DNA from: Synechococcus sp. Tobar12-5m-g
Lineage (GTDB): Bacteria > Cyanobacteriota > Cyanobacteriia > PCC-6307 > Cyanobiaceae
Reading direction: 5' to 3'
DNA length: 64,000 bases
Assembly (NCBI RefSeq): GCF_024345415.1
Contig: NZ_JAGQBB010000013.1
Span: forward strand, 1-64,000
A model generated the notes under the pieces. That model was not told where the DNA came from and ran no database searches. It was given only the letters and a program-made list of their open reading frames with translations. Position 1 is the first letter of the stretch. Every line of letters starts with the position of its first letter. Below are positions 44,199 through 59,035 of the stretch, piece after piece. The translations under genes and the position numbers were made by a program.

Positions 44199-47100
44199 CT
44201 AACTCTGATCGCGATTCGCATAGACAGGCAAGTGAAGGGCAGACACTTCATCCCGCTCAGGACGATCCAACTTGCCAGCAGAAACAGGCGCGGCTGTTGT
44301 CATGACTTTGGTGCGGCTCTGGGATTTCCAAAACTCGTACTTTAGCAGCGGAAGGCTGGCAACCGTCTGGGCCATTGACCAGAAAAAGATGTAACTCGCA
44401 AGTAACCTTCGAAACGAGCCGAATCGTGATTCACGTAGAGACTCCATGATCTTGTCCCCCTGGTGGTCAGTTCCGAACTCCTCACAGGCCTTGTGAACCG
44501 GACTGGGCAGAACAATTCCCTTGGCAAATCCTTTGGTGCCAATCGAAGGATTGGAACCAACCAACAAGATTTCTGGCCCTGTCTTCAGATGTTGAATCCC
44601 ATGGGCCTGCCGGCCGGCCATCATGGCTGCCGTCTCTTCGCTGCGCTGCTGCTCACTGCACCGACCATCAGGGATGCCTAGGAAGAGGAGCGTGCCTCGA
44701 ACGATCCGATGGGCGTAAGAGTGAACCAGATCATCCTGAGGGTTGGCTGCCTGGACCTCCAATGACGTCACTCCATAACTTAACGAGAACAGTTTGCTGA
44801 CAAAGTTGCTGAGAATCTGATGGACCCAGGGGGTTTCCCCAATGACCAAGGTTCGTTTCCCGGCTCTGGCGAGCACTTGCCGTCCCTGCGCCAAGCGAAG
44901 CCCAATCGTCCAGAGCCAGGGTCCAAAGATGTAGATCCCTAGATCGGCCATCGCCAATGCTCCTGAGAGCGCCTGAATCAGGAGCCAATCTGAACTCAGA
45001 CCGAAAGCGTCGATCAGCGCGTTCCACACGGTCTGCATCAGCGGGATCGTGTGCCCAAAAGGGATGGCCCAACCAACTGTGATCGCAACATAGAGAGCCT
45101 GAATGGCCCAGGCTATTGGGTGTTCAAGCACATGAAATCCCCAATGTCTCCCCCCTTCGACAATTTGCCTGTAAAGTCGAGTTGGTTTTCTCTTTCGTTG
45201 GCAGTCAGCTCCAATGATGTTGACCACAGACTGCAGGAATAGATGGTCTTCCATGCCTTCGAGCACCAACAGACTCCTGGAGCTCAGGGTCATGCCAAGT
45301 GGGTGCTGATCAGGAAAGGCCAACTGGATCTGTCGACAGAGACAGAAGAGCAGCTCAGTCAGCGTCTGGTGGAGCGCAGCGACAGAGGCTGTCGCTGGTT
45401 CGGCCGTGCGGCGACCACCACCACTGTTGAACAGTCGCCTCGAGAATGGTTCACCCGCACAGGCTGACTGCATCATTGAGGAGCCAACAAAACTGGTTGG
45501 CTCGCCGGTGAGCACAAACACTTCACGGATCACATCTTCCCGGACGAGCAGATCACAGGCCTCCATGACCTGCCTTGTGCAGAAGGTTTGACCTGACTGG
45601 CTGATGGCCAGCACCACCGTTTGCCTGGCTAGACCCAGTCCATCAAAATCATGCTGAAGGCTCTGAAGGACATGGTTGGAGGAAAGTGTCTTGATCGTCA
45701 ACAACGGAAAGACAGAGGCCAGGTCCTTGGCAAACTGGGCGCCAACCCACAGACTGTTCTCCACCCCAGTCACAAGCAGGTCCACATGACTGGACTTGGC
45801 CAGCGACGGATCCAGGCCAACTTTGTTCAGCAGGGCCTGCTTATCCTGGAGATGATGGGCCTTGGCGATGAGAATGTTGATGAAGTAGTCAGCACTTTGC
45901 CGATTCAAAGACGATGGGTTGATCCAGTCATCCTTGATGGCATGCAACATCCAGGGAATGTCGCGCAAGTCAGCTGCTACGGGATCCTTTCTTGCTTCTG
46001 CGGATGGATGGTTGGGTTTTAAGTGGGGATTTTTTTTGTAGAGAATCTTTCTGCCCAGAAGTTCATCAGCTGAAATATTCCGCATGTCCGATAGGGAGTA
46101 AACCCTTAGGCCTGTGGATGTCAGGACTGCGACTTCGCCTGAATTCTGATTCAGATCAATCCTGAAGGCCTGCGGCCTCAACGCCAACGTTGCATCAATC
46201 GAAGCGGGTTCTGAAGCGTAGAGAGAAACCCGGGCTTCAGGATCAAAGCCTGTGGATAGTGGTTGTCCAAGACAACCCAGAACGACTTGATCAGGTGTAA
46301 GGGTGGAAAGGGTGATGAGGCCGAAGCTACCTCTGGCCTGAGTCAGAAACAAACGGCTGGCTTGCTCCGGATCATTGTGAAGAAAAGCATGGACCGTCTC
46401 GTCAATGAAGGTCCACAAGCGATCCGCCCCGTTCATGCTCAAGCAAGAATCGAGGGTTAGGTTGTCATGGATGCGGCGTTGCATTTGCTGCCGCCTGAGC
46501 TTGTCATCGCTCCATCCCCGCTCTGAATAGGTTTGGGCAAAGTCTACAAAGCATGTTTCGAAGATGGATGCCCAGTGCTCAAGAGTCGAACGGGAGGGTG
46601 CCGTTTGAGGCGCGGCCTTGGTTGGAGTCATTCCACCAAATGCAGCCGAAACGTCTTGCGCAATCGCAATTTGATAGCCCAGCCTAACGGCTGAATACCA
46701 GTTTCCCTTGCAGATCAGGACGTCCAGCATGCCTGCGATCTTGGGGGAATCTCCCAATGTTTTGTTGGCAACGTGGAGGACTCTCTCCAGCCACAATCCA
46801 AGAGTTTCGTAATCAACAACCCTGTTGAATAACTTGAAACCCTCGAAGTCTCCGTTGTGAGTGATGCGATGGTTGATATTTTGTTGGGTCGCTGACCAGT
46901 GGCCATCGTGTTGTTCCCAAATTCGATCGACCCGGGCCGGGCACCATTCGTGCCAATGGGTTTCAAGAACAGATGGCGGTCCACTGGTCCCGAAGCGATA
47001 GTGCCAAGCTGCCGTGATGCAGGAGTTCAAGGGCCTGTAGCCCGCTCGAATTGCCTGACGCCGCTTTCGTGCAAAGGCCGATTCAAGGTGGAGGGTCAGA

Positions 47101-47924
47101 TTTTGCCGTTTGGTGTTGACCAACTTCTCCCCGACAAACCGGATGTGTCCCGCTCTGTCACAGGCGAGAACGAGGCCCCCTCCAGCCTGTTCTCCACGAA
47201 CTTCCGTTTCGTGGCCCATGGTTCGGAAACGCTCAATCCCCTGTTGTGACAGCAACTCATTGGCTGAGATATCGTCTCGCTCGGCAATGAAGCCAAAATT
47301 GCCGCAGTAGAAACAATCAGCGTGCCCTGTGAGCAAGGCAGCCCAATCAGTTCTTGAGCAAGCCAGCAGCATGCCGTTGCTCGCCAGCAAGCTCCCCACC
47401 ATGCTGCTGCTAAGCCAGAATGGAAGGAGGCCGTTGTGCAGCGCCAGGTTGAATTCTGGCGATTGGATCGCGGCAAGGGCCCCGGCAACGGCCACGCCGT
47501 TCAACACCAATCCACCTGTCGCCTTCATGCGAAGTTTCCAGGCCGCTGGGTCTCCAGCGTGGACCCACGGCAAGGCATGTCCCCAAGTCCATGGGCCACC
47601 GATCCATTGAAACGGCATCAATGAGCGGGCCAGCGTTATAAGATCCTGATGCTCGGCAATGTTGTCAACGCTCAGAGCCTTGCCGTTTCTGTCCACGGCG
47701 GCGATCAGCAACGTATGCCCCAAGCCGTGCAGCAGGACCGCAGCGTTCCAACCCGTACGAATCACGACGGACAGGCTCAAGATCACTCCGACGGATGCCA
47801 TGGCCCCACGGTCGGAACCAACATCCAATCCCCCAAACCCGAGGAGCACGGAGGCAACTTCCGGCCAACAATGTGTCCCTACAACGTAAAGACGAGGTCT
47901 GGAAGTGAATCGGAGTGTGGTCAT
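44199..47924 (-). CDS. Giant membrane protein: degenerate S2P-like domain + GlmS-like GATase II + SIS
   Basis: 1241 residues from ATG 47924, preceded at eight bases by AAGGAAGG (47933-47940); ATG 47954 adds 10 residues without a good site. Residues 40-200 are membrane helices with HGLGH (66-70), a site-2-protease HExxH in which Glu is Gly. A class II amidotransferase follows: YCGNFGFIAERDD (Cys207 matching GlmS Cys1), SCITAAWHYRFGTSGPPS, HNGD (356-359), RGSFGLITLSTLTPDQVVLG (from 531). A GlmS-like linker PWMLHAIKDDWINP (657-670) leads to a SIS domain with SQSGQT (775-780); a second, weaker SIS-like segment starts near 1024 after inserted membrane helices. Class II amidotransferases use an N-terminal Cys, so an internal one implies cleavage or lost activity. 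Substrate unknown. Codon use is A+T-richer than in neighbours. A CRP box lies 210 bases upstream. Confidence 0.8.
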   Translation of the reverse strand: MTTLRFTSRPRLYVVGTHCWPEVASVLLGFGGLDVGSDRGAMASVGVILSLSVVIRTGWNAAVLLHGLGHTLLIAAVDRNGKALSVDNIAEHQDLITLARSLMPFQWIGGPWTWGHALPWVHAGDPAAWKLRMKATGGLVLNGVAVAGALAAIQSPEFNLALHNGLLPFWLSSSMVGSLLASNGMLLACSRTDWAALLTGHADCFYCGNFGFIAERDDISANELLSQQGIERFRTMGHETEVRGEQAGGGLVLACDRAGHIRFVGEKLVNTKRQNLTLHLESAFARKRRQAIRAGYRPLNSCITAAWHYRFGTSGPPSVLETHWHEWCPARVDRIWEQHDGHWSATQQNINHRITHNGDFEGFKLFNRVVDYETLGLWLERVLHVANKTLGDSPKIAGMLDVLICKGNWYSAVRLGYQIAIAQDVSAAFGGMTPTKAAPQTAPSRSTLEHWASIFETCFVDFAQTYSERGWSDDKLRRQQMQRRIHDNLTLDSCLSMNGADRLWTFIDETVHAFLHNDPEQASRLFLTQARGSFGLITLSTLTPDQVVLGCLGQPLSTGFDPEARVSLYASEPASIDATLALRPQAFRIDLNQNSGEVAVLTSTGLRVYSLSDMRNISADELLGRKILYKKNPHLKPNHPSAEARKDPVAADLRDIPWMLHAIKDDWINPSSLNRQSADYFINILIAKAHHLQDKQALLNKVGLDPSLAKSSHVDLLVTGVENSLWVGAQFAKDLASVFPLLTIKTLSSNHVLQSLQHDFDGLGLARQTVVLAISQSGQTFCTRQVMEACDLLVREDVIREVFVLTGEPTSFVGSSMMQSACAGEPFSRRLFNSGGGRRTAEPATASVAALHQTLTELLFCLCRQIQLAFPDQHPLGMTLSSRSLLVLEGMEDHLFLQSVVNIIGADCQRKRKPTRLYRQIVEGGRHWGFHVLEHPIAWAIQALYVAITVGWAIPFGHTIPLMQTVWNALIDAFGLSSDWLLIQALSGALAMADLGIYIFGPWLWTIGLRLAQGRQVLARAGKRTLVIGETPWVHQILSNFVSKLFSLSYGVTSLEVQAANPQDDLVHSYAHRIVRGTLLFLGIPDGRCSEQQRSEETAAMMAGRQAHGIQHLKTGPEILLVGSNPSIGTKGFAKGIVLPSPVHKACEEFGTDHQGDKIMESLRESRFGSFRRLLASYIFFWSMAQTVASLPLLKYEFWKSQSRTKVMTTAAPVSAGKLDRPERDEVSALHLPVYANRDQS

Positions 47925-48226
47925 TGCCAGGACCTTCCTTCTCGACGCTTCCATCGTGAAAGCGTCCTTGGGGATCCAGGGTGATCTCAGTCCCGAAACC
48001 TGGTGATCCTGATCATCTCCGTGTTCCAGCTACTCTTGGGTTGGTCACGCTCCGCTGGCTTCAGTCCTGCCCCCAGATTGAGAAGGCAGGACTGTGCTCT
48101 CAGGGATCGTTGAAGGAGTGAAGCGCCCCATCCTGTGAGTCGGATCACAGCAGTCCTTGTGCTTGGTCACTGTCTCAGTGCGGGATCGATCACCAGACTG
48201 GGTTGCACCCGATGAGGGACCGTTCC
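47925..48226. other. Divergent promoter region with CRP box
   Basis: About 300 bases between the giant-protein gene (minus) and the DUF928-like gene (plus). Contains the perfect CRP box at 48134-48149 and a GAGGGA ribosome site (48214-48219) for the plus-strand gene. No other gene-like frame. Confidence 0.6.
48134..48149. promoter_or_regulatory. CRP-type operator TGTGA-N6-TCACA
   Basis: TGTGAGTCGGATCACA, a perfect match to the CRP consensus also used by cyanobacterial SYCRP1. It lies 78 bases before the DUF928-like start (48227) and 210 bases before the giant-protein start (47924), so it can serve either promoter. Same half-sites as the box at 58187. Confidence 0.8.
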
Positions 48227-48943
48227 ATGGCATCTCGACTGACTGCTTCCCCCAGGATCGGAAGGCTCAGGATCCGGGCAGCTTTGGCGGCCATCCTGCC
48301 GGTCTTGGCTCTTATCGCGCCGAAGGCCACAGCAGGAGACAACAGCCGCAAGTTTCCTGTCTACCGGGAGTCAGGTGGCAGCCGGGATCTCTGCCTGTCC
48401 CGGAAGGTGGTCCACCTGGTGCCTTTAGACAGCCGGTTCGCTCCCGGCAAGGCCCGCAGAATCGCTCTCCTGGAAGGGCAAAGTACCGATCCTCGGCCCT
48501 TGATGGTGCACCTGGAATCGCTCGGACTGTGGACACTGCCACCGAGGCCCCCCGGGGTGCGGCTGCTGACGATCCCGTCCATCGATCGCGAGGTGCTCTG
48601 GGAAAGTTTCCCCCGTTGCCAGGATGCGGACCAACCTGAAGGGCTGTCCGGCGCTCCGCCGGCCCGTTCGTTGCTGGAGCCGCTCCCAGGCGCTGATGAT
48701 CAAGAGGCCGTGCTGGAGATCCAACGGCTCAGCCGAGCCTGCGGGGGGACCATTGCCACAGCCGGATTGCTGGCCGTGTTCTCCTATGAGCACCTGATGG
48801 GTCAACTTCCAGCGCGACTCCCGGTGTCCTGCGAGGGGTTGTCAGGAGCCTCGGGGCTTGCCCCATCGATCAGTTCCCAGGCTTCCAGCCCCTCCGAGCG
48901 CCCATCAAGCGGCACCATCCCCCGGGGTTTCCAGGCACCCTGA
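48227..48943 (+). CDS. Secreted DUF928-like protein
   Basis: 238 residues from ATG 48227, with GAGGGA eight bases upstream. RIRAALAAILPVLALIAPKA TAG is a signal peptide. The mature start KFPVYRESGGSRDLCLSRKV followed by VHLVPLDSRFAPGKARRIAL resembles DUF928, small secreted cyanobacterial proteins that recur beside CHASE2, CHAT and FhaC genes; here they also adjoin. The last 140 bases overlap the convergent cyclase gene, and the C-terminal 45 residues are low-complexity, so the true fold may end near residue 190. Function unknown. Confidence 0.6.
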   Translation: MASRLTASPRIGRLRIRAALAAILPVLALIAPKATAGDNSRKFPVYRESGGSRDLCLSRKVVHLVPLDSRFAPGKARRIALLEGQSTDPRPLMVHLESLGLWTLPPRPPGVRLLTIPSIDREVLWESFPRCQDADQPEGLSGAPPARSLLEPLPGADDQEAVLEIQRLSRACGGTIATAGLLAVFSYEHLMGQLPARLPVSCEGLSGASGLAPSISSQASSPSERPSSGTIPRGFQAP

Positions 48944-50736
48944 ACCCGATCAGCGACCAACCGATGGGTGGTGGATGACACCATCACCTGGCAATGGTCG
49001 GTGATGGTTGTTTTGGCGAAGGATTCGATTCTGGAGGCGCAGTTGACGACATCACCGATGAGGCCGAACTCCCATCGTTCCGGGCTCCCGACCGACCCGG
49101 CGATGACCCAGCCGCTGTGCAAGCCGACCCGCAGTTGCAGCAAAGGTTGGCCTTCCAGCTTCAGGAATCCATTGAGTTGCCTGAGCTGTTCACGCATTGC
49201 GGAGGCCGAGTTGACGGCGGCGGTCGCGTCTTCGGCGACTCCCTGGCTGAGGGGGGCCCCAAACACGGCCATCAGCCCATCCCCGGTGAACTTGTTGACG
49301 AGCCCACCGTGCATGTGAACCGATGACACCATCACGCCCATGCTCCTGTTCAGCCAGGTGAGCAAAGCATCTGGATCGAGGCGTTCGGCCAGGCGGCTGA
49401 AATGAGCGATGTCCGCGAACAGCACCGTGACGCACACCTGGCGGCCGGGGAATCGCCCGCCCTCCAGCAGTCCCTGCCGCTTGTCCAGAAGTTCGTGGGC
49501 CATGGCAGCCGAGGTGGTTTGACCAAGCAGGCGCTCCAGTTCGAGGCCTTGCCTTTGCTCTTCCATGCCACGGCGGGTCCAGGCGGCGGCGGAGAAGGCT
49601 GCCAGGGCGGCCAGGGGCAGCGCGCCGTCAAACCAGACCCCTTGGCCCAGAGCCACGGCACCGGCGAGGGCAGCCAGGAGAGCCAAAGTGCCGACGGCCG
49701 CCAGGCTGCGGCGCAGGCTTCCGATCCCTTCTCCGAGGCCGATCCCGAGCCCCAGGCCCGCCAACACCAGAAGGGCATTCGCCCAGCCCGGTGCCGCCAA
49801 TAGGCCGAAGGAATGGCTGCTCTCCTGGGCCAGCAGGGCTGCGGTGCGATGGGCGTGGATTTCAACCCCCGGCATCGTGGCGAGGCCCCGTGCAGCGCCG
49901 AACCGGCTGAAGGGGACTCGGAAACTGTCTCGCAGGGAGGGCGCCAGATTGCCGATCAGCACGATTTTCCCCCTCAGCTCGGCGGTGGGCACCCCTCCGC
50001 TGAGCAACAGACTCAGGCTCCAGGTCGGGAAACTTCCAGCCCGGTGAAAGGCCAACATTCTTTGCACACCAGCATTGTCGAGGTCGGTGTAGCCACCGCC
50101 GGATTGCTCCAGGCCTGAAAGGTTCGAATCGCCGCGCTCAATTCGCTGCCGCAACAGGGTTTTGCCGGTGGCAACCTCCAGCAGACGCATCGGCAGGGTC
50201 ACCCCCTCTGGGCCCAGTCCGCGCACATGGACCAGATCACGGCGCACCACACCATCCGGGTCAATCGTCAGATCGATGTACGCACGTCGGTCTGGCGGGG
50301 TTCCCGGAATCGCACCGATCCGGTCAACCGCGCTGTACACCGACACCAGGCGGCCGTGGCTGGCTGCCAGGGAGCGGAGGCGTTCTTGGTGGATGCCGAC
50401 ACCAAGATCCCGATAGAGATCAAGACCGATGGCGCCGACGCCGGCCCGATCCAGACGCTCGATCGCCTCGGCCAACAAACCATCATCCAGGGGCCAGCCC
50501 AGTTTCCTCAGGTCCGCTTCCCCGATGCCGATGATGGCGATCGGCGTTTCCCGACCAGAGGGGGCGGCACGCCACTGGGTGACCAGATCGTAGAGAAGGA
50601 GATTCAGGCTCTCGCTGAGGTGAGCCTGACGGAGCGACACCAGCAGCACCAGGGCCGCGGCATAGGGAATCAGGCGCCGCAGGCGCTTCCAGGCAGGGCG
50701 CCCCGGAGTTGACCGATCCATCCACCTGGGGGCCAT
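48802..50736 (-). CDS. CHASE2-domain nucleotide cyclase
   Basis: 644 residues. Membrane helix LIPYAAALVLLVSLRQAH, an extracytoplasmic CHASE2 sensor (about 50-330; DLVTQWRAAPSGRETPIAII, RGKIVLIGNLAPSLRDSFRV), three further helices (about 340-430), and a class III cyclase domain from 436. Metal Asp442 (FADIAHFS) and Asp486 (NKFTGDGLMAVFG), and Asn565/Arg569 (IGDVVNCASRIES) are intact. Lys482 is the adenine-selecting residue; the partner position, Asp/Thr in known adenylyl cyclases, is Gly, so cAMP is likely but not certain. Last gene of the secretion operon, 14 bases after the FhaC gene. ATG 50736 chosen, alternative 50721. Confidence 0.9.
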   Translation of the reverse strand: MAPRWMDRSTPGRPAWKRLRRLIPYAAALVLLVSLRQAHLSESLNLLLYDLVTQWRAAPSGRETPIAIIGIGEADLRKLGWPLDDGLLAEAIERLDRAGVGAIGLDLYRDLGVGIHQERLRSLAASHGRLVSVYSAVDRIGAIPGTPPDRRAYIDLTIDPDGVVRRDLVHVRGLGPEGVTLPMRLLEVATGKTLLRQRIERGDSNLSGLEQSGGGYTDLDNAGVQRMLAFHRAGSFPTWSLSLLLSGGVPTAELRGKIVLIGNLAPSLRDSFRVPFSRFGAARGLATMPGVEIHAHRTAALLAQESSHSFGLLAAPGWANALLVLAGLGLGIGLGEGIGSLRRSLAAVGTLALLAALAGAVALGQGVWFDGALPLAALAAFSAAAWTRRGMEEQRQGLELERLLGQTTSAAMAHELLDKRQGLLEGGRFPGRQVCVTVLFADIAHFSRLAERLDPDALLTWLNRSMGVMVSSVHMHGGLVNKFTGDGLMAVFGAPLSQGVAEDATAAVNSASAMREQLRQLNGFLKLEGQPLLQLRVGLHSGWVIAGSVGSPERWEFGLIGDVVNCASRIESFAKTTITDHCQVMVSSTTHRLVADRVQGAWKPRGMVPLDGRSEGLEAWELIDGASPEAPDNPSQDTGSRAGS

Positions 50737-50750
50737 GACGTCGGGCGGAA

Positions 50751-52466
50751 CTAGAAGCGATAGCTCAGCTTGGTGTAGATCCCGCTTCCGAGCAGCCAAT
50801 CTCCCCAGAAGGGTCGCTGTTCGGTGCCGAACTGGTTGGACCAGCCCAACTCGACGAGCCAGCCCGATCGATTCACCCAGCGCAGCAGGAGCCCCCCGGC
50901 CCCGGCGCCGTCCGTGAGGGTTCCATCGGTTGTTTCGGTGCGGATTGCGCCCGCGCCGATGAACGGCACCAGCTGAAGCAGGGTCTGGCCCTGGCTCCAG
51001 ATGCTCCAACTGAGTTCGGCCCTTCCGAGCAGGCCGCTGTCACCGCTGATCACCTGGCCGGGAAGGCCCCGCAGCCCGTTATCGCTGCCAAGGGCAAAGC
51101 CCATCGGGCCGGTGAGCGGTTGGAACGCAAGCTGGCCCGCGGCGCCGAGTTGGAGCTGCCAGCGGGGGGCAAGGGCCCAGGCCCCGTTGAGCTGGCCGCC
51201 GATGCTGCGGGCTTCTCCAGGTTGGATACCGAACGAGGCCAGGTAGTTCAGCTGGGCCGCGGTGCTGAGGCCGGCAATCCCCTGGAGCCCGTAGACACTG
51301 CCGCTCCAGGCGAAACCGGCACCGCGGCCCTCGGCGTTGATGCCCGCTCTCAGAAAGCCGGTGCGAAGCCAGCCTTCGCTCCCCCCGCCACCGATGGCGG
51401 GGAAGCTGGCTCCGGCCAGGTAGGCGTCGCTGCGACTGACGCTGAGACCGGCGAAGGCGGACCAGCGACTGGAAGGGGTTTCCCAAAGGGTGATCTCCAG
51501 TTGCCCCAGCAGCTGCAACTGGCGAAAGGAGAGCTGATCTGCTGGCGGGATCGCTTCGACAAGAGTGCGGCGACTCACCCCCAAGGCAGTTGTGAAGCCG
51601 AGGCGATCGCCCAGAGGCAGGCTGTAGCTGATCGAGCCGATGGTGTAGCCCAGGCTGGGCTTGGAATCGGTGTTGATCTCACCGAACACCAGCAGGGTGT
51701 CACCGCCCAGGGCGAGATTGTTCTTCAGCAGGGTGGCCAGGCCCCGGAATTGGCCGCTGCCGCCATTGCCGTCGTTGCGGAGGGCGACTTCTCCCTGTAG
51801 CGGCTCTGCAGCGGATTCGGCGTTGACCACCAGGACGGCCCGGGTGGAGTCGCCACCGAGCCGGTTGAGTTTGGCGTCCAGTTGGCCGACGCCGGAGAGT
51901 CGTTGAAGCCGTTGGATCGTGAGCTCGAGGCTGGGCAGGTGCAGAACGGTGCCCTGCAGCGGCAGCAGCAGCCGCTGCAGCCTTCGGGTCAGGCGTGGGC
52001 TGGTGCTGGTGATGTTGATTTCGACGATCCGCCCCTCGACCACTTCCAACACCCCTGGAAAAGGCGTGGCCAATGGATACACCCGGCTGTTGACGTAACC
52101 ATCCAGCACGAGCCGGGTGGTGAGGGCGGCGGCACAGGCGCTCAGCCGCTCGGCGGGATAGGCGATCGCGGCACAGGGAACCAGGATCCTCCTGAGTTCA
52201 TCGGCTGTATAGCGGTCAAGCCCTTCGACCCGCGGCAGTCCCTGCGGATCTGCTCCACCGGGTTGGCGCCCCTGGGGGGGCTGCTGCTGAGGCTCCCTTG
52301 GCAGCCTGGGCTCCACCTGCTCGTTCGGCTGCTGAAGCTGCGGTATTGGCTGGCGTTGCTGGCCCGGGGCCTGGGGCGGCTGAACGATGCCGGAACCTGG
52401 CAAGCGCACCGGCCCCGGCTGAAGGGGCGGGGCGACGAGCTGGGCGAGCAGCTGCAGGGCGATCAA
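50751..52466 (-). CDS. FhaC/ShlB/HecB-family two-partner-secretion transporter
   Basis: 571 residues. Signal region, Pro/Gln-rich linker (about 15-75), a POTRA domain (VEGLDRYTADELRRILVPC onward, with VLDGYVNSRVYPLATPFPG then VLEVVEGRIVEINI), and a C-terminal 16-strand barrel with many alternating strands (GFTTALGVSRRTLVEAIPP) closing on a terminal phenylalanine (YTKLSYRF). FhaC-type barrels export TPS proteins across the outer membrane. In the same operon as a TPS-domain protein, its probable substrate. Start overlaps the upstream gene by four bases. Confidence 0.92.
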   Translation of the reverse strand: MIALQLLAQLVAPPLQPGPVRLPGSGIVQPPQAPGQQRQPIPQLQQPNEQVEPRLPREPQQQPPQGRQPGGADPQGLPRVEGLDRYTADELRRILVPCAAIAYPAERLSACAAALTTRLVLDGYVNSRVYPLATPFPGVLEVVEGRIVEINITSTSPRLTRRLQRLLLPLQGTVLHLPSLELTIQRLQRLSGVGQLDAKLNRLGGDSTRAVLVVNAESAAEPLQGEVALRNDGNGGSGQFRGLATLLKNNLALGGDTLLVFGEINTDSKPSLGYTIGSISYSLPLGDRLGFTTALGVSRRTLVEAIPPADQLSFRQLQLLGQLEITLWETPSSRWSAFAGLSVSRSDAYLAGASFPAIGGGGSEGWLRTGFLRAGINAEGRGAGFAWSGSVYGLQGIAGLSTAAQLNYLASFGIQPGEARSIGGQLNGAWALAPRWQLQLGAAGQLAFQPLTGPMGFALGSDNGLRGLPGQVISGDSGLLGRAELSWSIWSQGQTLLQLVPFIGAGAIRTETTDGTLTDGAGAGGLLLRWVNRSGWLVELGWSNQFGTEQRPFWGDWLLGSGIYTKLSYRF

Positions 52467-53098
52467 CGCCCAATGGTTGCTGCTGGTTCCGGAGCAGGGG
52501 CCTGCACTGGTGGCGGCAGCTTGTCCTTGGAGCTTTCTGATGGCTCAGCCTCAGCCACCAGGACGAAAGACGTTTCCAGAACATTCAAGGACGGATCAGC
52601 CGGTTCGATGGACAACGACCTGCCGCTGGCATCGGTGAATTCGGCGATGACGGTTCCCGGATTGCCCTCACTTCCGTAGGCCTCGGTGTCATTGCTGAAG
52701 CTCGCCAAAAGGCCGCGGCCGGGGAAGTAAACGAAAGGAATATGAGAACCCTGGCTTGGTAGCTCAACACCATCTTCGCGATTTAGAGGCAACCGGGCAA
52801 TGAAGATCTTTTGGGAACCGGCCTCCAATGGCTTGCCATTGAAGATGATCCGCTGGTCATCAGGATTGAAGACCAGCCTCGAATCCCCAGGTGAGAATCC
52901 CACCAATCTGGCGACGCCTGGCACGGGTTTGAGCGGGGTGACTTGACCTGGCAAGCGTGACCAAAACAGGAGTGCAACAACCAGAAGAGCAATCAGTAGG
53001 CCAAGGGCGATGCAGAGAGGGTTTGGCCTGAAACTATTGTTCGGCTCGGAGGGAGTAGGGCCTGAGCTGCTCATGGATGTAAGGGGGTAATTCATCAT
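52463..53098 (-). CDS. Membrane-anchored protein of the TPS operon
   Basis: 211 residues. A short disordered N-terminus, one membrane helix IALGLLIALLVVALLFWSRL (about 31-50), then a periplasmic beta-rich domain: LVGFSPGDSRLVFNPDDQRI, FVYFPGRGLLASFSNDTEAY, VIAEFTDASGRSLSIEPADP. A Pro/Ala-rich tail (PPPVQAPAPEPAATIGR) follows. Family not recognised; a periplasmic helper for the TPS system is inferred from its place between the secreted protein genes and fhaC, with a four-base overlap to fhaC. Confidence 0.7.
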   Translation of the reverse strand: MMNYPLTSMSSSGPTPSEPNNSFRPNPLCIALGLLIALLVVALLFWSRLPGQVTPLKPVPGVARLVGFSPGDSRLVFNPDDQRIIFNGKPLEAGSQKIFIARLPLNREDGVELPSQGSHIPFVYFPGRGLLASFSNDTEAYGSEGNPGTVIAEFTDASGRSLSIEPADPSLNVLETSFVLVAEAEPSESSKDKLPPPVQAPAPEPAATIGR

Positions 53099-53824
53099 TC
53101 AGGGGACAGGGATGATCGAACAACGATCTAGCCAATCTCCCGATGAATTTAGGATTCCGCCGCCATAGGTGGTGGCACCCATGACGAACCCTCCCCCACT
53201 CGCATTCGCCTTCCAATAATAGAGACGTCGTAGGCAGTCAGCCGACTCCATCGCTCGATTGATGTAGACAGCATTGTTCGTGCCGGCGCCAAACGTAACC
53301 AAGTCTTTTTCGCTTGCAATTCCGGTTGTAGTTACTGCAAGGCAATCTGTGCTGCCTGATACGGTGCAAGAAGGCAGCCTGGTGATGCTTGTTTGGGCGG
53401 AGTTGCCCAGCACATAGGTGGTGGGTTGGCTGCCACCAGAAAAGGTGTTCGAGCCAATGTTGCCCACCATGATATTAGGACCGACACCTGAACTGCCGTT
53501 ACCAGTTCCATTCAAGGGAAGTCTGCCAGCCAAGGTAAGTCGAGTCACCTTGCCACCAAGTGAGATGGATTGATTTGTTGAGACAGTAGCATCTTGGGGA
53601 TGCCAGAACACATGGGTAATGGGTGGTTCACCTGTCGTTTGCAGACAACTTAGATCACCCGGGTCCCTAAACTTGCAGATCATTGCGGTGTTCGGTTGGG
53701 CCGCCAACCCTCGTTCCGGCAGAATGAGCCAAGCGATCGCCATCACGGCAAGCAGAGCGATACCGCGGCGTATCCAGCCTGGCAATAAGGAAGATAGCGG
53801 GGGAGCATTGGAGGGGTTCATCAT
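53099..53824 (-). CDS. Exported protein of the TPS operon
   Basis: 241 residues from ATG 53824. Basic start then a signal segment RRGIALLAVMAIAWLILPER with cleavage after GLAA. The mature protein is Ser/Thr/Gly/Asn-rich with cysteines at MICKFRDPGDLSCL, SCTVSGSTDCLAV and ADCLRRLYY, plus DWLDRCSIIPVP: six to seven cysteines suggest disulfides. The middle, GPNIMVGNIGSNTFSGGS, is beta-helix-like. Not recognised. The stop abuts the next gene, and the start is 68 bases after the CHAT protein stop. Confidence 0.7.
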   Translation of the reverse strand: MMNPSNAPPLSSLLPGWIRRGIALLAVMAIAWLILPERGLAAQPNTAMICKFRDPGDLSCLQTTGEPPITHVFWHPQDATVSTNQSISLGGKVTRLTLAGRLPLNGTGNGSSGVGPNIMVGNIGSNTFSGGSQPTTYVLGNSAQTSITRLPSCTVSGSTDCLAVTTTGIASEKDLVTFGAGTNNAVYINRAMESADCLRRLYYWKANASGGGFVMGATTYGGGILNSSGDWLDRCSIIPVP

Positions 53825-53891
53825 GTGGTTTGGTGCGAGCACATTTTTCTGGGGATAATACCAAGTAATGGCGGATAAATTGTGTTCATTG

Positions 53892-56800
53892 TTACCAAGG
53901 CCTGCCGGTGAGCAATACGCCTGCCCAGTAATACGGATGGGTGAGGCCTTGGGCATACCGCGCCTGATCACTGCGCGAGAGGTCACGGATCAGAACTTGA
54001 CCACCAGGCCCGATAAGATCGGACCCGGACACTCTGATTTTGCCCCGCTGGAAGGCCCGGCGCGTGGCCTGCAGGGCCACGTCCTTGGTCATTCCCCCCC
54101 TCAGGTAACGGTAGAACTGGATGAAAAAGGCCGCGTTGCCGGCGTCGTCCACGGACCAGAGGGTACCGAGTCCTGAATGGCCGCCAAAGGTGAGTGCCGC
54201 TCCAAGCAGGCCAAGCTCACTGCGCTCGTCGCCAAGTGCGGTTCGGCAGGCACTCAGGCTGACCAGATCCAGCCGGTTTGGCGTGCGCTTCCCAGCCTGG
54301 AGGCTGGCGAGATTGAATGCGCCGTTAGTGGTGTGGAGCGTACCAAGACCTGTTTGGCCGGAGCTTAGTTCCGCATGGGTAGCGATATGGATCTGGGAGT
54401 AGTTGGTGGTGTTGATCCGGGTACGAAGATTGGGCCCATTGAACGCATCATCGAGCAGTAGATCGGAGGGCTCGCCGGCGGAGATCTCCCCAAGTTCCTG
54501 TTTAACGAGAGGAAGTGGAACCAGGCCCGAACTGAACTTGCTCGCCCCGGCCAGGAGGATGCGCCGGGGAGTATCTCCTGGATCTGGAGAAGGCGTACTG
54601 AGATCGGTGAGGCCAAGGGAGGGAGTGATGGTGAGGGCAAAACGCTGACCGAAAAAGCTGGTTTCCGTGAGCGGAAGGGCAGCAAAGGGGATCGCCTGAA
54701 GCCTCCGATCCGCTGAAAGCAGAACCGAGGTAATCCGCTCCTTCTCCAACACGGGGAGAACATCCGCGAGCAGGAGTGAGGCGAGCTCACGGCCCTGCGG
54801 CGATTGCCCGGCCTGATCGAGCCATTCCATGCGGCTGAACTGTCGCTGCACGTTGCCAATGAGTTGATGGAGTGCCTCCTGGTTGACGCGGTGCTGCCAG
54901 CCCAGCAACGGACCGTGGGGAGGGATCAACACCACATCGATCAACACCTCGCCCGTTGGCAGGGGCCAGGCGTTGAACCTCAGGATGGCTGGGGAATAGG
55001 GCCTTCCGGGGCCGCCCTCTAATCCTGAGGGGGAAAGCGCCTGATGACGCCGATCGGCCTCGCTCGCCTGCAAGTTCTCCTGCAGCGTGGCCACGCTGGG
55101 TACCACGGTGTCTCGGCCGGATTCGAGGCCGAGAGCCTGGATGGTTGACTTCATGGCAAGGCTTTCTCCCCGCTCGAAGCTTTCCACCCCTTCGGGAACG
55201 CTCAGCAACCGCACCGGGTTTATCGGTGGCAGCGAGGGCCCCTGGGACATGATTGACGACCCCGCAGCAACGAGCCTTTCGCCTTCGCTGATGCTGCCCG
55301 CAGCAACCTCAGGTGTTGAGATGGCCTTAGTGATCCCTTCACCGCCAGGGGGGGGGATCACAACAGCGGTCACGGTCATCGTGGGTCCAGGGGCCAACCA
55401 CCAGTTACGAGGTGGTTCCCAGGGGAACTCCACGGCATTCACTGAGGCCGAAGCGATCGAAGTTGCTGAAGGGATCACGGTAGAGTTACTAATCCCGTCT
55501 GGCGTGCTAGTGATCAATGTGATCTTCTGGTCAGGCTGACCACCTATAAGGGGGTTGTTGGTGACGCCCCCCGGCTCAAGAACGATGGTGTACGCATTGA
55601 CCAGGCCAGTCTCACGGCTCTGGTTCACAAGCCCTTCGGGACCGTCTAGAACGGTATCAACCGCCCTACCACCCTGGATTTGAATGGCTCCTAGATTATT
55701 GCGAAGTTGATCAAAGCTTACCTGGATTTGGTTGCCAACTTCTTCAGGCGAGCCGATACTGATCTGCAGGGAGCCTCCAGGAGTTAGCAGGAGGCCAGAG
55801 CCATCTGAAGTGGCCACTGCCGATCGCAGCTCAATGGAGCCCGTGGCTGCAGGATCCTGCGCTGTTGCTGTGCGTCCAGTCGTGATGGAGCTGTCGATGG
55901 CGATAATCGCCCCAAGGCCTGTGAGAGCCAATTGGCCGGCTGGAGCCAGGGTGCTTTGATCACCGCTGATGTTGAACCTGGTGTTGCTGATGGTTTGCTG
56001 ACCTCGGCTGACTGCTCGAATTGCACCTTGAAAGCCGAACGGATCAGGCTGAAACGGGTATCCAAGATCTGGGGAGATTGGATTGCTGCTGCTCACATCG
56101 AGTGTGGCGTTAGCCAATGCGATGTTCGAGTTGCTGAAAAGGTCGATCCGGCCACCCCGCCCGAAGAAGTAAGTTGCATTTCCAAGAGCCTTGGGGGTGT
56201 TGAACAGGGTTCCACCGGTGCGTGCCGTCAGAGTCGATTCCTGATCGATGGTTAACCCTTCCTGACGGTAAGCCGAGAGATTGAGGATCTGGATACTGCC
56301 GCCGAAGCTTTCAAGCTGACCACCGAGGCTCGGTGAGCTGTCGACACTCAGAACAGAGTGGTCTGTGACTTGAATACCCCCTTGGGAAATCACCCGAATC
56401 TTTCCACCCAGAACAGTAAATCCGGTGCCTGCATCAACTGCATTATCTGTGCCATCGGTTCGATCAGTGAAACGTATTATGGGACCACCTTCCTGGGAAT
56501 CCACGAATGTGCGGTTCTCCAGCGGCCCGGCGGACGTGTGATACGGGGCATTCAACGTCGATCGTTGGATTGTGATGCCTTGCTTCTTTGAGTTGTTGAG
56601 AAGGGTAATTTCTCCTCCTGCAAAGTTACTGATTGTTGCCCACCCTGTTCTTCCTCCGGGGCCGGCCGGAAAATGGTCGCTCTCGGCAATCAGCTTGCTG
56701 TTGAAGAGAACAATTCCTGCAGCGCTGCTCAACCGCAGATCACCTGATCCCGCCCCTCCGCTGGCGCCCAACAGGGAGTCGGACAGTTTGATTCCTCCAT

Positions 56801-58130
56801 TGTTGCCGTTGGACTGGAAGGCAAGGTTCCCCGCCAGATTGTGCGTCGCGTCGGCGCGGGCCACGCTGCGGCGGAAGTCAATCCCACCATCGGCAGCCAG
56901 CACCACATTGCCACTGGTGTCTGTAAGTTGAATCGCGCTGCGCGGCAGAGCTGGATTTGCCTCCAGCAGCGGCGTCAGAATTTGGGATGCGTTGAGAGAC
57001 GATCCACTGACGAGGATGTCGCCCTTGGAGAACAGGCCGATTAGGGGGTCAGGGTCAGGTTGGGTCAGCGTCGCTCCGCTGTCGAAAACAACGGAGGTGA
57101 TGGGAGAGCGGAGGTCTTCCAGCGTGTGAACACCCACATCCAAGCTGCTGTTGACCACCGACAGCGGTTGGTCGGGGTTCCAGCTTTCCAGGTGGATCAA
57201 TCCCTTCGGCGCCAGGAGCGTGCTGTCAATCACCGAAACCTTGCCTGCCCTCAGGAACAATTGCTTGCCTTCAAGGTTGGATTGCTGCAACTGAAGGGCA
57301 TCGATCGCCTGAAGATCGATCGCCCCGCGTTTGCCGGGCTGGCCAGATTTCAACTGGATGTCGTTCAGCTCGATCTGCTGCGCACCAAGTCGCAATCGGT
57401 CAAGTCCAGGTTCGGTGAGCGGCAGGTAACCCGCCGTGAGCAGGCTGTTGCTGCCGGCTTCGCTGCGAATGGCACCGTTGCCTGCCTCGAGAATCAGCGA
57501 CCGGTCCACCGTCAACCTGCCTCCGGCCAACACGATCGACCCGTTTGTTGTCCCCAGCCCAAGGCTGTCCAGGGTTCCCAAGCTCGTTTTGAGCGCCTGC
57601 CAGCTCAGCTCCGGCGGTGCGGTCAGGGCAGCAGCTGCGGCGGCATCGGTGCTGAAGGCATCGAAAACGCCACTCTCACCAATCCTCAGGCCCGTGGAGG
57701 TGGAAAGCAACAGATTCGTGGTGTTCACCACCTTGGCTCCAGGCCCCAGCCAGATGCCGCCGGGCGAGAGCCAGAACAGGTTGGCCGGGGCCGAAAGACT
57801 CAGCGTCTTGTCGAGAAAGGTGCCGAGCCGGTCGCTGACCCCCACGATCACATTGGAGCGTCCCTGGGTATCGATGCCCACCCCGTTGATCCCGCCGCGG
57901 GTGTCAAACTGTTGGAAGCGATGAAACAAGTTGGGGCCTGCCGCAGTGCCGCCGCCGACGGAGCAGAAACCGCTGCTGCAACGGCCGTTCGTGGCGCCAT
58001 TCACCTGGGTTCCCAGACCCCCTCCGACCACGTCGGCCAAGGCCGGAAAGGACACGAGGACCAGGGCGAGGGACCCGAAACGGAACCACCGAACTCCCAG
58101 GATGCCCTTTTGTGTCTTTCTCAGACGCAT
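53892..58130 (-). CDS. Secreted TPS-domain (haemagglutinin-like) protein with C-terminal CHAT protease
   Basis: 1412 residues. Signal MRLRKTQKGILGVRWFRFGS then LALVLVSFPALA; the TPS domain (about 33-290) has NLFHRFQQFDTR, SDRLGTFLDKTLSLSAPANL and FWLSPGGIWLGPGAKVVN, the NP(N/G)GI motif position. A long beta-helix follows to about residue 900 (many IDLQ, GGSLQI and GGxI segments), then a Pro-rich linker and CHAT (about 1090-1412) with His1252 in IHIATHAEL and Cys1295 in SLSACRTALGDERSELG, and a C-terminal strand LTHPYYWAGVLLTG. CHAT domains are caspase-related cysteine proteases (or inactive relatives). Probably exported by the operon FhaC. A CRP box lies 56 bases upstream. Confidence 0.88.
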   Translation of the reverse strand: MRLRKTQKGILGVRWFRFGSLALVLVSFPALADVVGGGLGTQVNGATNGRCSSGFCSVGGGTAAGPNLFHRFQQFDTRGGINGVGIDTQGRSNVIVGVSDRLGTFLDKTLSLSAPANLFWLSPGGIWLGPGAKVVNTTNLLLSTSTGLRIGESGVFDAFSTDAAAAAALTAPPELSWQALKTSLGTLDSLGLGTTNGSIVLAGGRLTVDRSLILEAGNGAIRSEAGSNSLLTAGYLPLTEPGLDRLRLGAQQIELNDIQLKSGQPGKRGAIDLQAIDALQLQQSNLEGKQLFLRAGKVSVIDSTLLAPKGLIHLESWNPDQPLSVVNSSLDVGVHTLEDLRSPITSVVFDSGATLTQPDPDPLIGLFSKGDILVSGSSLNASQILTPLLEANPALPRSAIQLTDTSGNVVLAADGGIDFRRSVARADATHNLAGNLAFQSNGNNGGIKLSDSLLGASGGAGSGDLRLSSAAGIVLFNSKLIAESDHFPAGPGGRTGWATISNFAGGEITLLNNSKKQGITIQRSTLNAPYHTSAGPLENRTFVDSQEGGPIIRFTDRTDGTDNAVDAGTGFTVLGGKIRVISQGGIQVTDHSVLSVDSSPSLGGQLESFGGSIQILNLSAYRQEGLTIDQESTLTARTGGTLFNTPKALGNATYFFGRGGRIDLFSNSNIALANATLDVSSSNPISPDLGYPFQPDPFGFQGAIRAVSRGQQTISNTRFNISGDQSTLAPAGQLALTGLGAIIAIDSSITTGRTATAQDPAATGSIELRSAVATSDGSGLLLTPGGSLQISIGSPEEVGNQIQVSFDQLRNNLGAIQIQGGRAVDTVLDGPEGLVNQSRETGLVNAYTIVLEPGGVTNNPLIGGQPDQKITLITSTPDGISNSTVIPSATSIASASVNAVEFPWEPPRNWWLAPGPTMTVTAVVIPPPGGEGITKAISTPEVAAGSISEGERLVAAGSSIMSQGPSLPPINPVRLLSVPEGVESFERGESLAMKSTIQALGLESGRDTVVPSVATLQENLQASEADRRHQALSPSGLEGGPGRPYSPAILRFNAWPLPTGEVLIDVVLIPPHGPLLGWQHRVNQEALHQLIGNVQRQFSRMEWLDQAGQSPQGRELASLLLADVLPVLEKERITSVLLSADRRLQAIPFAALPLTETSFFGQRFALTITPSLGLTDLSTPSPDPGDTPRRILLAGASKFSSGLVPLPLVKQELGEISAGEPSDLLLDDAFNGPNLRTRINTTNYSQIHIATHAELSSGQTGLGTLHTTNGAFNLASLQAGKRTPNRLDLVSLSACRTALGDERSELGLLGAALTFGGHSGLGTLWSVDDAGNAAFFIQFYRYLRGGMTKDVALQATRRAFQRGKIRVSGSDLIGPGGQVLIRDLSRSDQARYAQGLTHPYYWAGVLLTGRPW

Positions 58131-58186
58131 TATTGGACCCATGAGAACTGTCCAGGCCAATCAAAGCAACTCCCCGCCGGGGTCGT

Positions 58187-58202
58187 TGTGATTAAGATCA
58201 CA
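58187..58202. promoter_or_regulatory. CRP-type operator TGTGA-N6-TCACA
   Basis: TGTGATTAAGATCACA, a perfect CRP consensus, extended by one base pair of symmetry each side (TTGTGA...TCACAA). It lies 56 bases before the start of the TPS/CHAT gene and 138 bases before the crp start, in their shared divergent region. Same motif as the box at 48134. Confidence 0.85.
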
Positions 58203-58339
58203 AAGCCAGCCCCCAGGCCCTCTTAGGCTCCATTGGATCGCCTATCAAGGCAGCATCTGGCGATGCAGCCTCAGGCATCGATCAACCAGCTTTGACACTT
58301 GGGCAGTGACTGTTTCTTGAACCACGTAGGCAGGCCCGG

Positions 58340-59035
58340 ATGGTTACGCAAAGCCCCACCAAAGCATCCGATCTTGCCGAAATCAGCTTGTTCGCCCTGC
58401 TCAGCGAGCAGCAACGGCATCGGCTGTTGGATCAACATCGGGGGGTCACGTTTGCTGCCGACCAGTTGCTGATCCTGGATCATGATGAATCCCAGGGCCT
58501 GATTCTTCTTCGTAATGGCATTGCCAAAGTCCGTCGATTCACCAACGACGGCGAGGAGGCCGTGCTCTCCCTCCTCGGCCCGGGTGAAGTGTGTGGCGAA
58601 ATGGCCGTTCTCAACAACGGCCGCCGTTCAGCCGATGTCGTCAGCCTCACGCAATGTGAAGCCGTCTTCCTGCGGGTCGGTCCCTTTCGCGAACTCCTGA
58701 ACTGTGAACCCAGGCTTGCCCTTGCCTTGGCGAAGCTTGAAGCCAGGCGGCTGCAGGACCTCAACCGTCGTTTCACCTTGCGGGGGGCTGATGCCAGCAC
58801 CCGCCTGCTTGCCACGCTCTGTGACATCGCCGTACGCGCCCACCCGGGCGCCGATACCTTCGCGGCAACTCCGCCCCTGCCGCATCGGGAGCTCGCGGCG
58901 CTCTCCGGGCTGGCTCGGGAGACGACATCACGCACCCTCAGCAAGTTGCGCCAGCGCGGCATCGTTGTGGAGGTGCATGGCGGTGGTCTGAAGATCGTCG
59001 ACCGTGAGTCCTTGCGTCAGCGGGACCTGCTCTAG
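58340..59035 (+). CDS. CRP-family transcriptional regulator
   Basis: 231 residues. Cyclic-nucleotide domain with the phosphate-binding cassette GEMAVLNNGRRSA at 86-98 (Glu87, Arg96 in the CRP positions), a dimerisation helix, and a winged helix whose recognition helix ARETTSRTLSKL matches E. coli CRP SRETVGRILKML at the DNA-contact residues Arg193, Glu194 and Arg198. This predicts TGTGA half-sites, which occur in both flanking divergent promoters of this block. The gene is divergent from the TPS operon containing the cyclase. Confidence 0.92.
   Translation: MVTQSPTKASDLAEISLFALLSEQQRHRLLDQHRGVTFAADQLLILDHDESQGLILLRNGIAKVRRFTNDGEEAVLSLLGPGEVCGEMAVLNNGRRSADVVSLTQCEAVFLRVGPFRELLNCEPRLALALAKLEARRLQDLNRRFTLRGADASTRLLATLCDIAVRAHPGADTFAATPPLPHRELAALSGLARETTSRTLSKLRQRGIVVEVHGGGLKIVDRESLRQRDLL

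What the first reader, a model, noticed from the sequence alone, without database searches (positions are those of the whole stretch)
50751..58130. A CHAT protease exported by two-partner secretion
Seen: a 1412-residue protein carries a signal peptide, a TPS domain, a long beta-helix and a CHAT domain with intact His1252 and Cys1295, with its own FhaC-type transporter in the operon. Known: TPS proteins are delivered to the cell surface by FhaC; CHAT is a caspase/separase-related protease fold. Inference: a surface or released protease, possibly used against neighbours or for self-processing of the adhesin. CHAT activity on the cell surface is poorly described.
Basis: partly seen in the sequence, partly recalled or inferred. 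Interest (0 to 1): 0.7.

Follow-up and report, generated by a model that had tools for sequence, protein, structure and literature searches.

The report
Exported caspase-like protease in signalling cluster
A cyanobacterium carries a large secreted protein that ends in a caspase-like protease domain, and its relatives keep it beside an outer-membrane exporter and a membrane sensor expected to make cyclic AMP, which suggests an outside-the-cytoplasm protease feeding a signal inward rather than a weapon.

Summary
The 1412-residue protein has a signal-peptide-like start, a TPS secretion domain (sub-threshold in Pfam, clear by fold: HMW1/HxuA/EtpA/FHA, Z 18-19), a repetitive middle and a C-terminal CHAT domain (1.6e-40) with His1252 and Cys1295. 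Its TpsB is the only one in the genome. The dyad is kept in 45 of 45 family relatives and 41 of 41 distant ones; CHAT is the most constrained part (dN/dS 0.17).

Unbiased clustering of 44 related stretches ranks TPS/CHAT, TpsB, CHASE2-cyclase and DUF928 as the most widely shared families. In 18 of 18 complete genomes CHASE2 lies within 15.3 kb of CHAT. In 13 of 45 family relatives CHAT is a separate gene, mostly with its own signal-peptide-like start.

Best reading: CHAT is an extracytoplasmic protease, probably acting in the periplasm, in a surface-to-cyclic-AMP system. A weapon is unlikely; self-processing stays open. TPS-CHAT fusions are common in cyanobacteria; six searches found no description in print. 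Activity, location and the CHAT-CHASE2 step are untested.

The parts
53892..58130 (-). TPS-CHAT exoprotein gene, 1412 aa (ATG at 58130)
   Evidence: 83% identical orthologue G002/L039 with the same gene order
58035..58130 (-). signal-peptide-like N-terminus, residues 1-32 (ALA before Asp33)
   Evidence: by eye and a crude hydrophobicity scan; no trained predictor available
57468..58022 (-). TPS secretion domain core (residues 37-221; fold model covers 30-340)
   Evidence: Pfam TPS 2e-05, below cut-off; structure match to HMW1/HxuA/EtpA/FHA, Z 18.2-19.2
55251..57467 (-). repetitive middle, presumed beta-helix passenger (about residues 222-960)
   Evidence: inference from sequence; its first turns (to residue 340) are all-beta in the model; least constrained part, dN/dS 0.37
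53895..54941 (-). CHAT domain, residues 1064-1412 (Pfam span 1112-1409)
   Evidence: Pfam CHAT 1.6e-40; dN/dS 0.17
54375..54377 (-). codon of His1252, presumed catalytic
   Evidence: H in 45 of 45 and 41 of 41 relatives
54246..54248 (-). codon of Cys1295, presumed catalytic nucleophile
   Evidence: C in 45 of 45 and 41 of 41 relatives
53099..53824 (-). small protein with signal-peptide-like start, no Pfam family; fused with the next one in L044 and L045
   Evidence: own profile found it in 4 stretches only
52463..53098 (-). small protein with one hydrophobic segment, no Pfam family above cut-off; 4 stretches only
50751..52466 (-). TpsB outer-membrane transporter (ShlB/FhaC/HecB barrel), the only one in the genome
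   Evidence: Pfam ShlB 5.3e-12; own-genome search
48802..50736 (-). CHASE2 sensor plus class III nucleotide cyclase, 644 aa
   Evidence: Pfam CHASE2 1.2e-44, Guanylate_cyc 1.1e-22; catalytic Asp, Asp, Asn, Arg present, as in 36 of 36 relatives
48203..48943 (+). DUF928-like protein with signal-peptide-like start, convergent
   Evidence: own profile 3e-66; a distant relative found with that profile is Pfam DUF928 1.6e-61; the window's protein itself has no Pfam match at E 0.01
58340..59035 (+). divergent CRP-type regulator with cyclic-nucleotide-binding domain; possible reader of the signal (inference)
   Evidence: Pfam cNMP_binding 3.7e-18, HTH_Crp_2 7.7e-15; same place in L039

Best explanation
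The window holds a two-partner-secretion exoprotein whose C-terminal domain is a caspase-like (CHAT) cysteine protease, in a cluster with its transporter and a CHASE2-adenylate-cyclase-like receptor. Shown from sequence: the domains, the dyad, the single cognate TpsB, and the conserved gene set. Inferred: the TPS end and helix are threaded out through TpsB and exposed, while the CHAT end is outside the cytoplasm, most likely on the periplasmic side. When the surface part meets its stimulus or is released, CHAT cuts a periplasmic target (the exoprotein itself, the DUF928-like protein, or CHASE2) and thereby sets the activity of the CHASE2-cyclase. Cyclic AMP is then read by nearby cyclic-nucleotide-binding proteins (CRP-type regulators; in relatives an MscS-type channel with a cNMP domain). 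It works as a sensor relay, not as a weapon.
For: Anatomy. Dyad in 45 of 45 and 41 of 41 relatives; CHAT has the lowest dN/dS of the protein, 0.166. Gene set: clustering of ORFs from 44 stretches of 42 genomes, 14 genera, puts TPS/CHAT (43 stretches), TpsB (36), CHASE2/cyclase (36) and DUF928 (28) first, the next families being in 11-12; by profile TpsB is in 39, CHASE2-cyclase in 36, DUF928 in 31 and all three in 29 of 44 stretches. Order and strand differ between clades, so the set persists through rearrangement. 18 of 18 complete genomes have CHASE2 within 15.3 kb of CHAT, 32 of 35 CHASE2 matches within 50 kb; by my count, 19 of 20 TpsB genes lie in the same places. Of 400 family genomes 89 have both a strong match to the window protein and CHASE2, 5 only the former, 51 only CHASE2, 255 neither. 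Extracytoplasmic CHAT: split CHATs mostly carry signal-peptide-like starts. Fused and split forms interconvert: at least 9 changes on the tree, 6 forced by starred branches. Cyclase: Asp, Asp, Asn, Arg in 36 of 36, adenine-type Lys in 33 and Asp in 32 of 36. MscS-cNMP channel in 21 of 44 stretches, 7 genera and in the own genome 14 kb beyond TPS-CHAT.
Against: No activity, location or substrate is known. Outside the family the link is weaker: CHASE2 in only 4 of 40 and TpsB in 9 of 40 distant stretches (my family-trained profiles may miss divergent ones). 51 of 400 family genomes have CHASE2 without a strong TPS-CHAT match. Two CHAT-CHASE2 single proteins exist (L155; a 798-aa ORF of G204); L155 has no signal peptide that I can see, so there CHAT is probably cytoplasmic, the opposite topology. 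Part of the conserved neighbourhood is shared descent: the island often sits by alaS, speA or ndk.
Confidence: 0.45

Rival explanations
1. Maturation protease: CHAT cuts its own exoprotein (in trans when split) to release or anchor the helix, and CHASE2-cyclase is only co-regulated.
For: CHAT is fused to, or encoded directly after, the TPS protein: in 8 of 13 split cases the two ORFs overlap by 1-4 bases, a translational-coupling arrangement. The link to TPS reaches across the phylum while the link to CHASE2 weakens: 32 of 35 distant long CHAT ORFs start with a Pfam TPS domain, CHASE2 in 4 of 40 stretches.
Against: Does not explain why nearly all CHASE2 genes of the complete family genomes examined lie beside it.
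Confidence: 0.3
2. Contact weapon: CHAT is a toxic tip delivered to neighbouring cells.
For: C-terminal position of an enzyme on a TPS protein, as in CdiA-type proteins (recalled).
Against: CHAT is the most conserved part, no shared immunity-like gene of 130 aa or more, a stand-alone exported CHAT occurs.
Confidence: 0.06
3. Pseudo-enzyme: CHAT is a binding domain without protease activity.
For: No activity data; my CHAT model was too poor to judge the site (pLDDT 45).
Against: His1252 and Cys1295 unchanged in 86 of 86 relatives and strong purifying selection.
Confidence: 0.1
4. The neighbourhood is only a shared surface-protein island near alaS/speA without functional coupling.
For: alaS, speA and ndk genes recur nearby, so position is partly inherited.
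Against: Same four families although order and strand differ and although the window clade has most of them in one direction; CHASE2 copies of 18 complete genomes are almost confined to it.
Confidence: 0.09

Closest known systems
Two-partner secretion exoproteins (TpsA): HMW1, HxuA, FHA, EtpA
   Same: Signal-peptide-like start, TPS domain fold (Z 18.2-19.2), long repetitive middle, nearby TpsB
   Different: Ends in a CHAT protease domain; TPS domain falls below Pfam and NCBIfam cut-offs; two invariant Cys in the family's TPS domain (C15, C20 of A2)
CHAT-domain proteins (Pfam PF12770; Craspase TPR-CHAT is the recalled characterised example)
   Same: Pfam match 1.6e-40 and His/Cys dyad
   Different: Apparently exported and fused to a TPS helix; no TPR or Cas partner found by Pfam; PMC10907252 (passages) treats CHAT as an effector of conflict systems, the CHAT-bearing target there being predicted cytoplasmic
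CHASE2-nucleotide cyclases
   Same: CHASE2 plus class III cyclase domain with catalytic residues
   Different: Here tied to an exported protease and a TPS system; PMC10581220 (passages) states CHASE2 ligands are unknown
CdiA-type contact-dependent inhibition proteins (recalled)
   Same: TPS exoprotein with a C-terminal enzyme domain
   Different: C-terminus conserved, no immunity gene family seen, split version exists

Membership tests
TPS exoprotein (TpsA) | TPS secretion domain | tested here: met
   Sub-threshold by profile but met by fold, best six entries all TPS proteins, Z 17.8-19.2; Foldseek E only 0.04 at best
TPS exoprotein (TpsA) | Sec signal peptide | tested here: inconclusive
   Clear by eye; my automatic rule also passes 96 of 250 other ORFs and 11 of 12 ndk-type ORFs, so it is not specific
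TPS exoprotein (TpsA) | Cognate TpsB gene | tested here: met
   50751-52466, only ShlB match in the genome
TPS exoprotein (TpsA) | Secretion across the outer membrane | not testable with these tools
   needs fractionation
CHAT family | Match to the CHAT profile over its length | tested here: met
   profile positions 3-288 of 289, 139.8 bits, cut-off 24
CHAT family | His-Cys dyad | tested here: met
   H1252, C1295; 45 of 45 and 41 of 41 relatives
CHAT family | Caspase-like fold | tested here: inconclusive
   model pLDDT 45 from 4 sequences; a sequence profile search of the PDB found no CHAT
CHAT family | Protease activity | not testable with these tools
   needs assay
TpsB (FhaC/Hmw1B) | ShlB barrel | tested here: met
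   ShlB 46.3 bits over cut-off 22.7
TpsB (FhaC/Hmw1B) | POTRA domain | tested here: inconclusive
   POTRA_2 17.6 bits, below cut-off 24
TpsB (FhaC/Hmw1B) | FhaC-type rather than Hmw1B-type | not tested
   PMC4104836 places many cyanobacterial TpsBs in the Hmw1B group
CHASE2-adenylate cyclase | CHASE2 plus class III catalytic residues | tested here: met
   (residue roles recalled)
CDI / polymorphic toxin | Hypervariable C-terminus with immunity gene | tested here: not met
Type III-E Craspase TPR-CHAT | TPR repeats and Cas partner | tested here: not met
   no TPR by Pfam at E 0.01 and none of the nine proteins scanned is Cas

The most novel reading that the evidence does not exclude
A trans-envelope relay in which a caspase-like protease carried by a two-partner-secretion surface protein provides the input of a CHASE2 receptor: stimulus on the outer surface, proteolysis in the periplasm, cyclic AMP inside, read by cNMP-gated channels and CRP-type regulators. 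It would give CHASE2 domains a candidate input and CHAT a role outside the cytoplasm.
Probability: 0.27. Interest if true: 0.82.

Novelty: new variant of a known kind. Interest (0 to 1): 0.6.

Why it matters
CHASE2 is a common bacterial sensor domain (216 of 244 sampled genomes of the phylum have a match), yet a 2023 paper states that its ligands are unknown (PMC10581220, passages). Here, in complete genomes of a family of small cyanobacteria, nearly every CHASE2 gene sits beside an apparently exported protease and its secretion partner, which makes a specific input testable. It would also extend caspase-like CHAT proteases, known as intracellular effectors of defence systems (recalled; PMC10907252), to the cell envelope, and give two-partner secretion a signalling use.

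Tried and rejected
Weapon reading: rejected on conservation of CHAT, lack of a shared immunity-like gene and the split form.

Its strand-His and strand-Cys order looks caspase-like but I give it no weight.

PDB profile searches: CHAT found only chance matches to YcgR and a Klebsiella entry and TPS found haemocyanin by chance; sequence does not reach the solved relatives.

Promoters and terminators: 2 promoter-like sites (1.6 expected) and 2 terminator-like sites (8.9 expected), nothing useful. Repeats in 48100-58400: only short imperfect pairs.

Signal-peptide rule: passes 42 of 45 family CHATs, 32 of 41 distant ones, but also 96 of 250 unlabelled ORFs and 11 of 12 ndk-like ORFs, so I rely on reading the N-termini.

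The first regular-expression scan of cyclase motifs and channel neighbours failed and was replaced by an alignment and a profile. L043 and L049 are one locus: A1 (46 rows) therefore holds 45 distinct CHATs; L043 was left out of the counts.

Literature: six searches on CHAT with TPS, FhaC, haemagglutinin or CHASE2 terms returned 0 papers; one search gave one, one, three, five (listings; passages read of three papers). The library lacks most subscription journals.
Full report
What is there. On the minus strand 58130-48802 the window holds five genes in one direction: a 1412-aa protein, two small proteins of about 241 and 211 aa, a TpsB transporter, and a CHASE2-cyclase; a DUF928-like gene converges from the other side. 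CHAT is a strong Pfam match (1.6e-40) and the named residues are His1252 and Cys1295. The genome has three CHAT matches, one TpsB and one TPS place.

TPS domain. Profiles find it only below their curated cut-offs (TIGR01901 17.5 bits; Pfam TPS 25.1 bits). Of 39 family TPS domains, 26 match Pfam TPS at E up to 0.1 and 26 match TIGR01901 at E up to 0.01. The predicted fold of residues 30-340, from three sequences, has mean pLDDT 71.6. Its best six VIA-align entries are all TPS proteins (HMW1 19.2, HxuA 19.1, EtpA 18.9, FHA 18.2, hemopexin-binding protein 18.1 and 17.8), well above the next match at 12.8. Foldseek itself gave no match under E 0.04, but its first 14 rows are TPS domains.

Relatives. 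The query protein matched 129 of 400 family genomes, 94 of them at E below 1e-15 by my reading, and 90 of 244 genomes drawn from the phylum. I used 44 stretches around CHAT or TPS genes from 42 family genomes of 14 genera (the window and loci), and 40 stretches from distant genomes chosen mostly for long CHAT ORFs.

Dyad and selection. In 45 distinct family CHATs and 41 distant ones the columns of His1248, His1252, Ser1293, Cys1295 and Asp1329 are invariant; these sets were picked by similarity to the window protein or to its profile. Between the window and L039, dN/dS is 0.166 for CHAT, 0.255 for the N-terminus and TPS domain, 0.263 for the linker and 0.374 for the middle.

Fused and split forms. 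32 of 45 family CHATs lie at the end of a long ORF, 31 of these with a detected TPS domain; the exception, L058, is cut by the stretch. 13 are short ORFs. In 8 of the 13 the upstream ORF has the TPS domain and overlaps the CHAT ORF by 1-4 bases (L040, L048, L051, L052, L053, L054, L056, L080); in L049 and L050 it is a giant ORF whose N-terminus lies outside the fetched stretch or ORF. Short CHATs mostly begin with a signal-peptide-like segment. On a tree of 86 CHATs the fused/split label needs at least 9 changes, of which starred branches force 6. A split CHAT has no TPS domain, so the simplest view is that it acts in the periplasm; by extension the fused CHAT may too. In HMW1 the C-terminus is held at the outer membrane (recalled), which fits.

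The fusion is widespread. Of 35 distant long CHAT ORFs, 32 begin with a Pfam TPS domain at E up to 0.001, best 2.1e-52. So TPS-CHAT is a common cyanobacterial architecture, and not peculiar to this genome.

The cluster. ORFs of the 44 stretches were clustered without reference to annotation: the families found in the most genera are TPS/CHAT (43 stretches, 14 genera), TpsB (36, 13), CHASE2/cyclase merged with other cyclases and cNMP proteins (36, 11) and DUF928 (28, 9); the next two, arginine-decarboxylase-like and ndk-like by my reading, are in 11 and 12 stretches. By profile, TpsB is in 39, CHASE2-cyclase in 36, DUF928 in 31 and all three in 29 of 44. In 18 complete genomes with TPS-CHAT, the nearest CHASE2 is 2.4-15.3 kb from CHAT in 18 of 18 and 32 of 35 CHASE2 matches are within 50 kb. 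In the same 18, I count 20 TpsB genes (adjacent pieces of G185 and G272 joined), 19 of them beside CHAT, and 26 CHAT matches, 19 in these places. Across 400 family genomes the 2x2 table of strong TPS-CHAT and CHASE2 is 89/5/51/255; genomes are related, so the Fisher value there is not a probability.

Cyclase and readers. In 36 CHASE2-cyclases the metal-binding Asp pair and transition-state Asn and Arg are present in all, the adenine-type Lys in 33 and Asp in 32 (roles recalled). Beside the cluster lie MscS-type channels with a cNMP domain in 21 of 44 stretches, 7 genera. In the own genome the same contig has such a channel, a glutaminase with a cNMP domain, a further cNMP-domain protein, alaS, an arginine decarboxylase and a second CHASE2-cyclase. 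A CRP-type regulator is divergent from TPS-CHAT.

Limits. Outside the family CHASE2 is in 4 of 40 and TpsB in 9 of 40 stretches; my profiles were trained on the family and may miss some. Exported-looking CHATs beside CHASE2 genes were seen in L161 and L163-L167 by eye. Two single proteins join CHAT and CHASE2: L155 (Pfam CHAT 3.1e-14, CHASE2 7.4e-71) and a 798-aa ORF of G204. In L155 the CHAT part keeps a His and a Cys in the expected motifs but has no signal peptide that I can see, so there CHAT may be a cytoplasmic output. The CHAT-CHASE2 link is thus recurrent, but its direction is not settled.

Mechanism. I favour an extracytoplasmic protease in a surface-to-cyclic-AMP relay (0.45), then exoprotein maturation (0.3). 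Both may be true.

Prior work. Six searches joining CHAT with TPS, FhaC, haemagglutinin or CHASE2 terms returned nothing; most subscription journals are not held. PMC10581220 (passages) states CHASE2 ligands are unknown. PMC10907252 (passages) treats CHAT as an effector of conflict systems. PMC4104836 (passages) places many cyanobacterial TpsBs in the Hmw1B group.

Noticed in passing
window 44199-47954 (-): A 1251-aa ORF with several hydrophobic stretches and no Pfam match at E 0.01.
   Followed up: no
L006:6205-8094 (+) (contig C5, about 6 kb beyond the window): Glutaminase joined to STAS-like and cyclic-nucleotide-binding domains; similar ORFs near the cluster in L050, L060, L068, L072, L073. 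Suggests glutaminase under cyclic-nucleotide control.
   Followed up: partly
L155:1300-3690 (-); G204:C1:3060960-3062426: CHAT and CHASE2 in one polypeptide, in L155 probably with CHAT in the cytoplasm.
   Followed up: partly
L161, L163, L164, L165, L166, L167: Other CHAT proteins (468-874 aa) with signal-peptide-like or lipoprotein-like starts near CHASE2 genes in distant cyanobacteria.
   Followed up: partly
G000:C31:4817-5734 (L001): Another CHAT match of the own genome has an in-frame TAG.
   Followed up: no
window 52463-53824 (-): Two small proteins between TPS-CHAT and TpsB, found in 4 stretches only and fused to one protein in L044 and L045; no Pfam family.
   Followed up: partly
alignment A2 (TPS domains; window 57468-58022): Two invariant cysteines (C15, C20 of the first row) in the family's TPS domains, a possible disulphide.
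   Followed up: no
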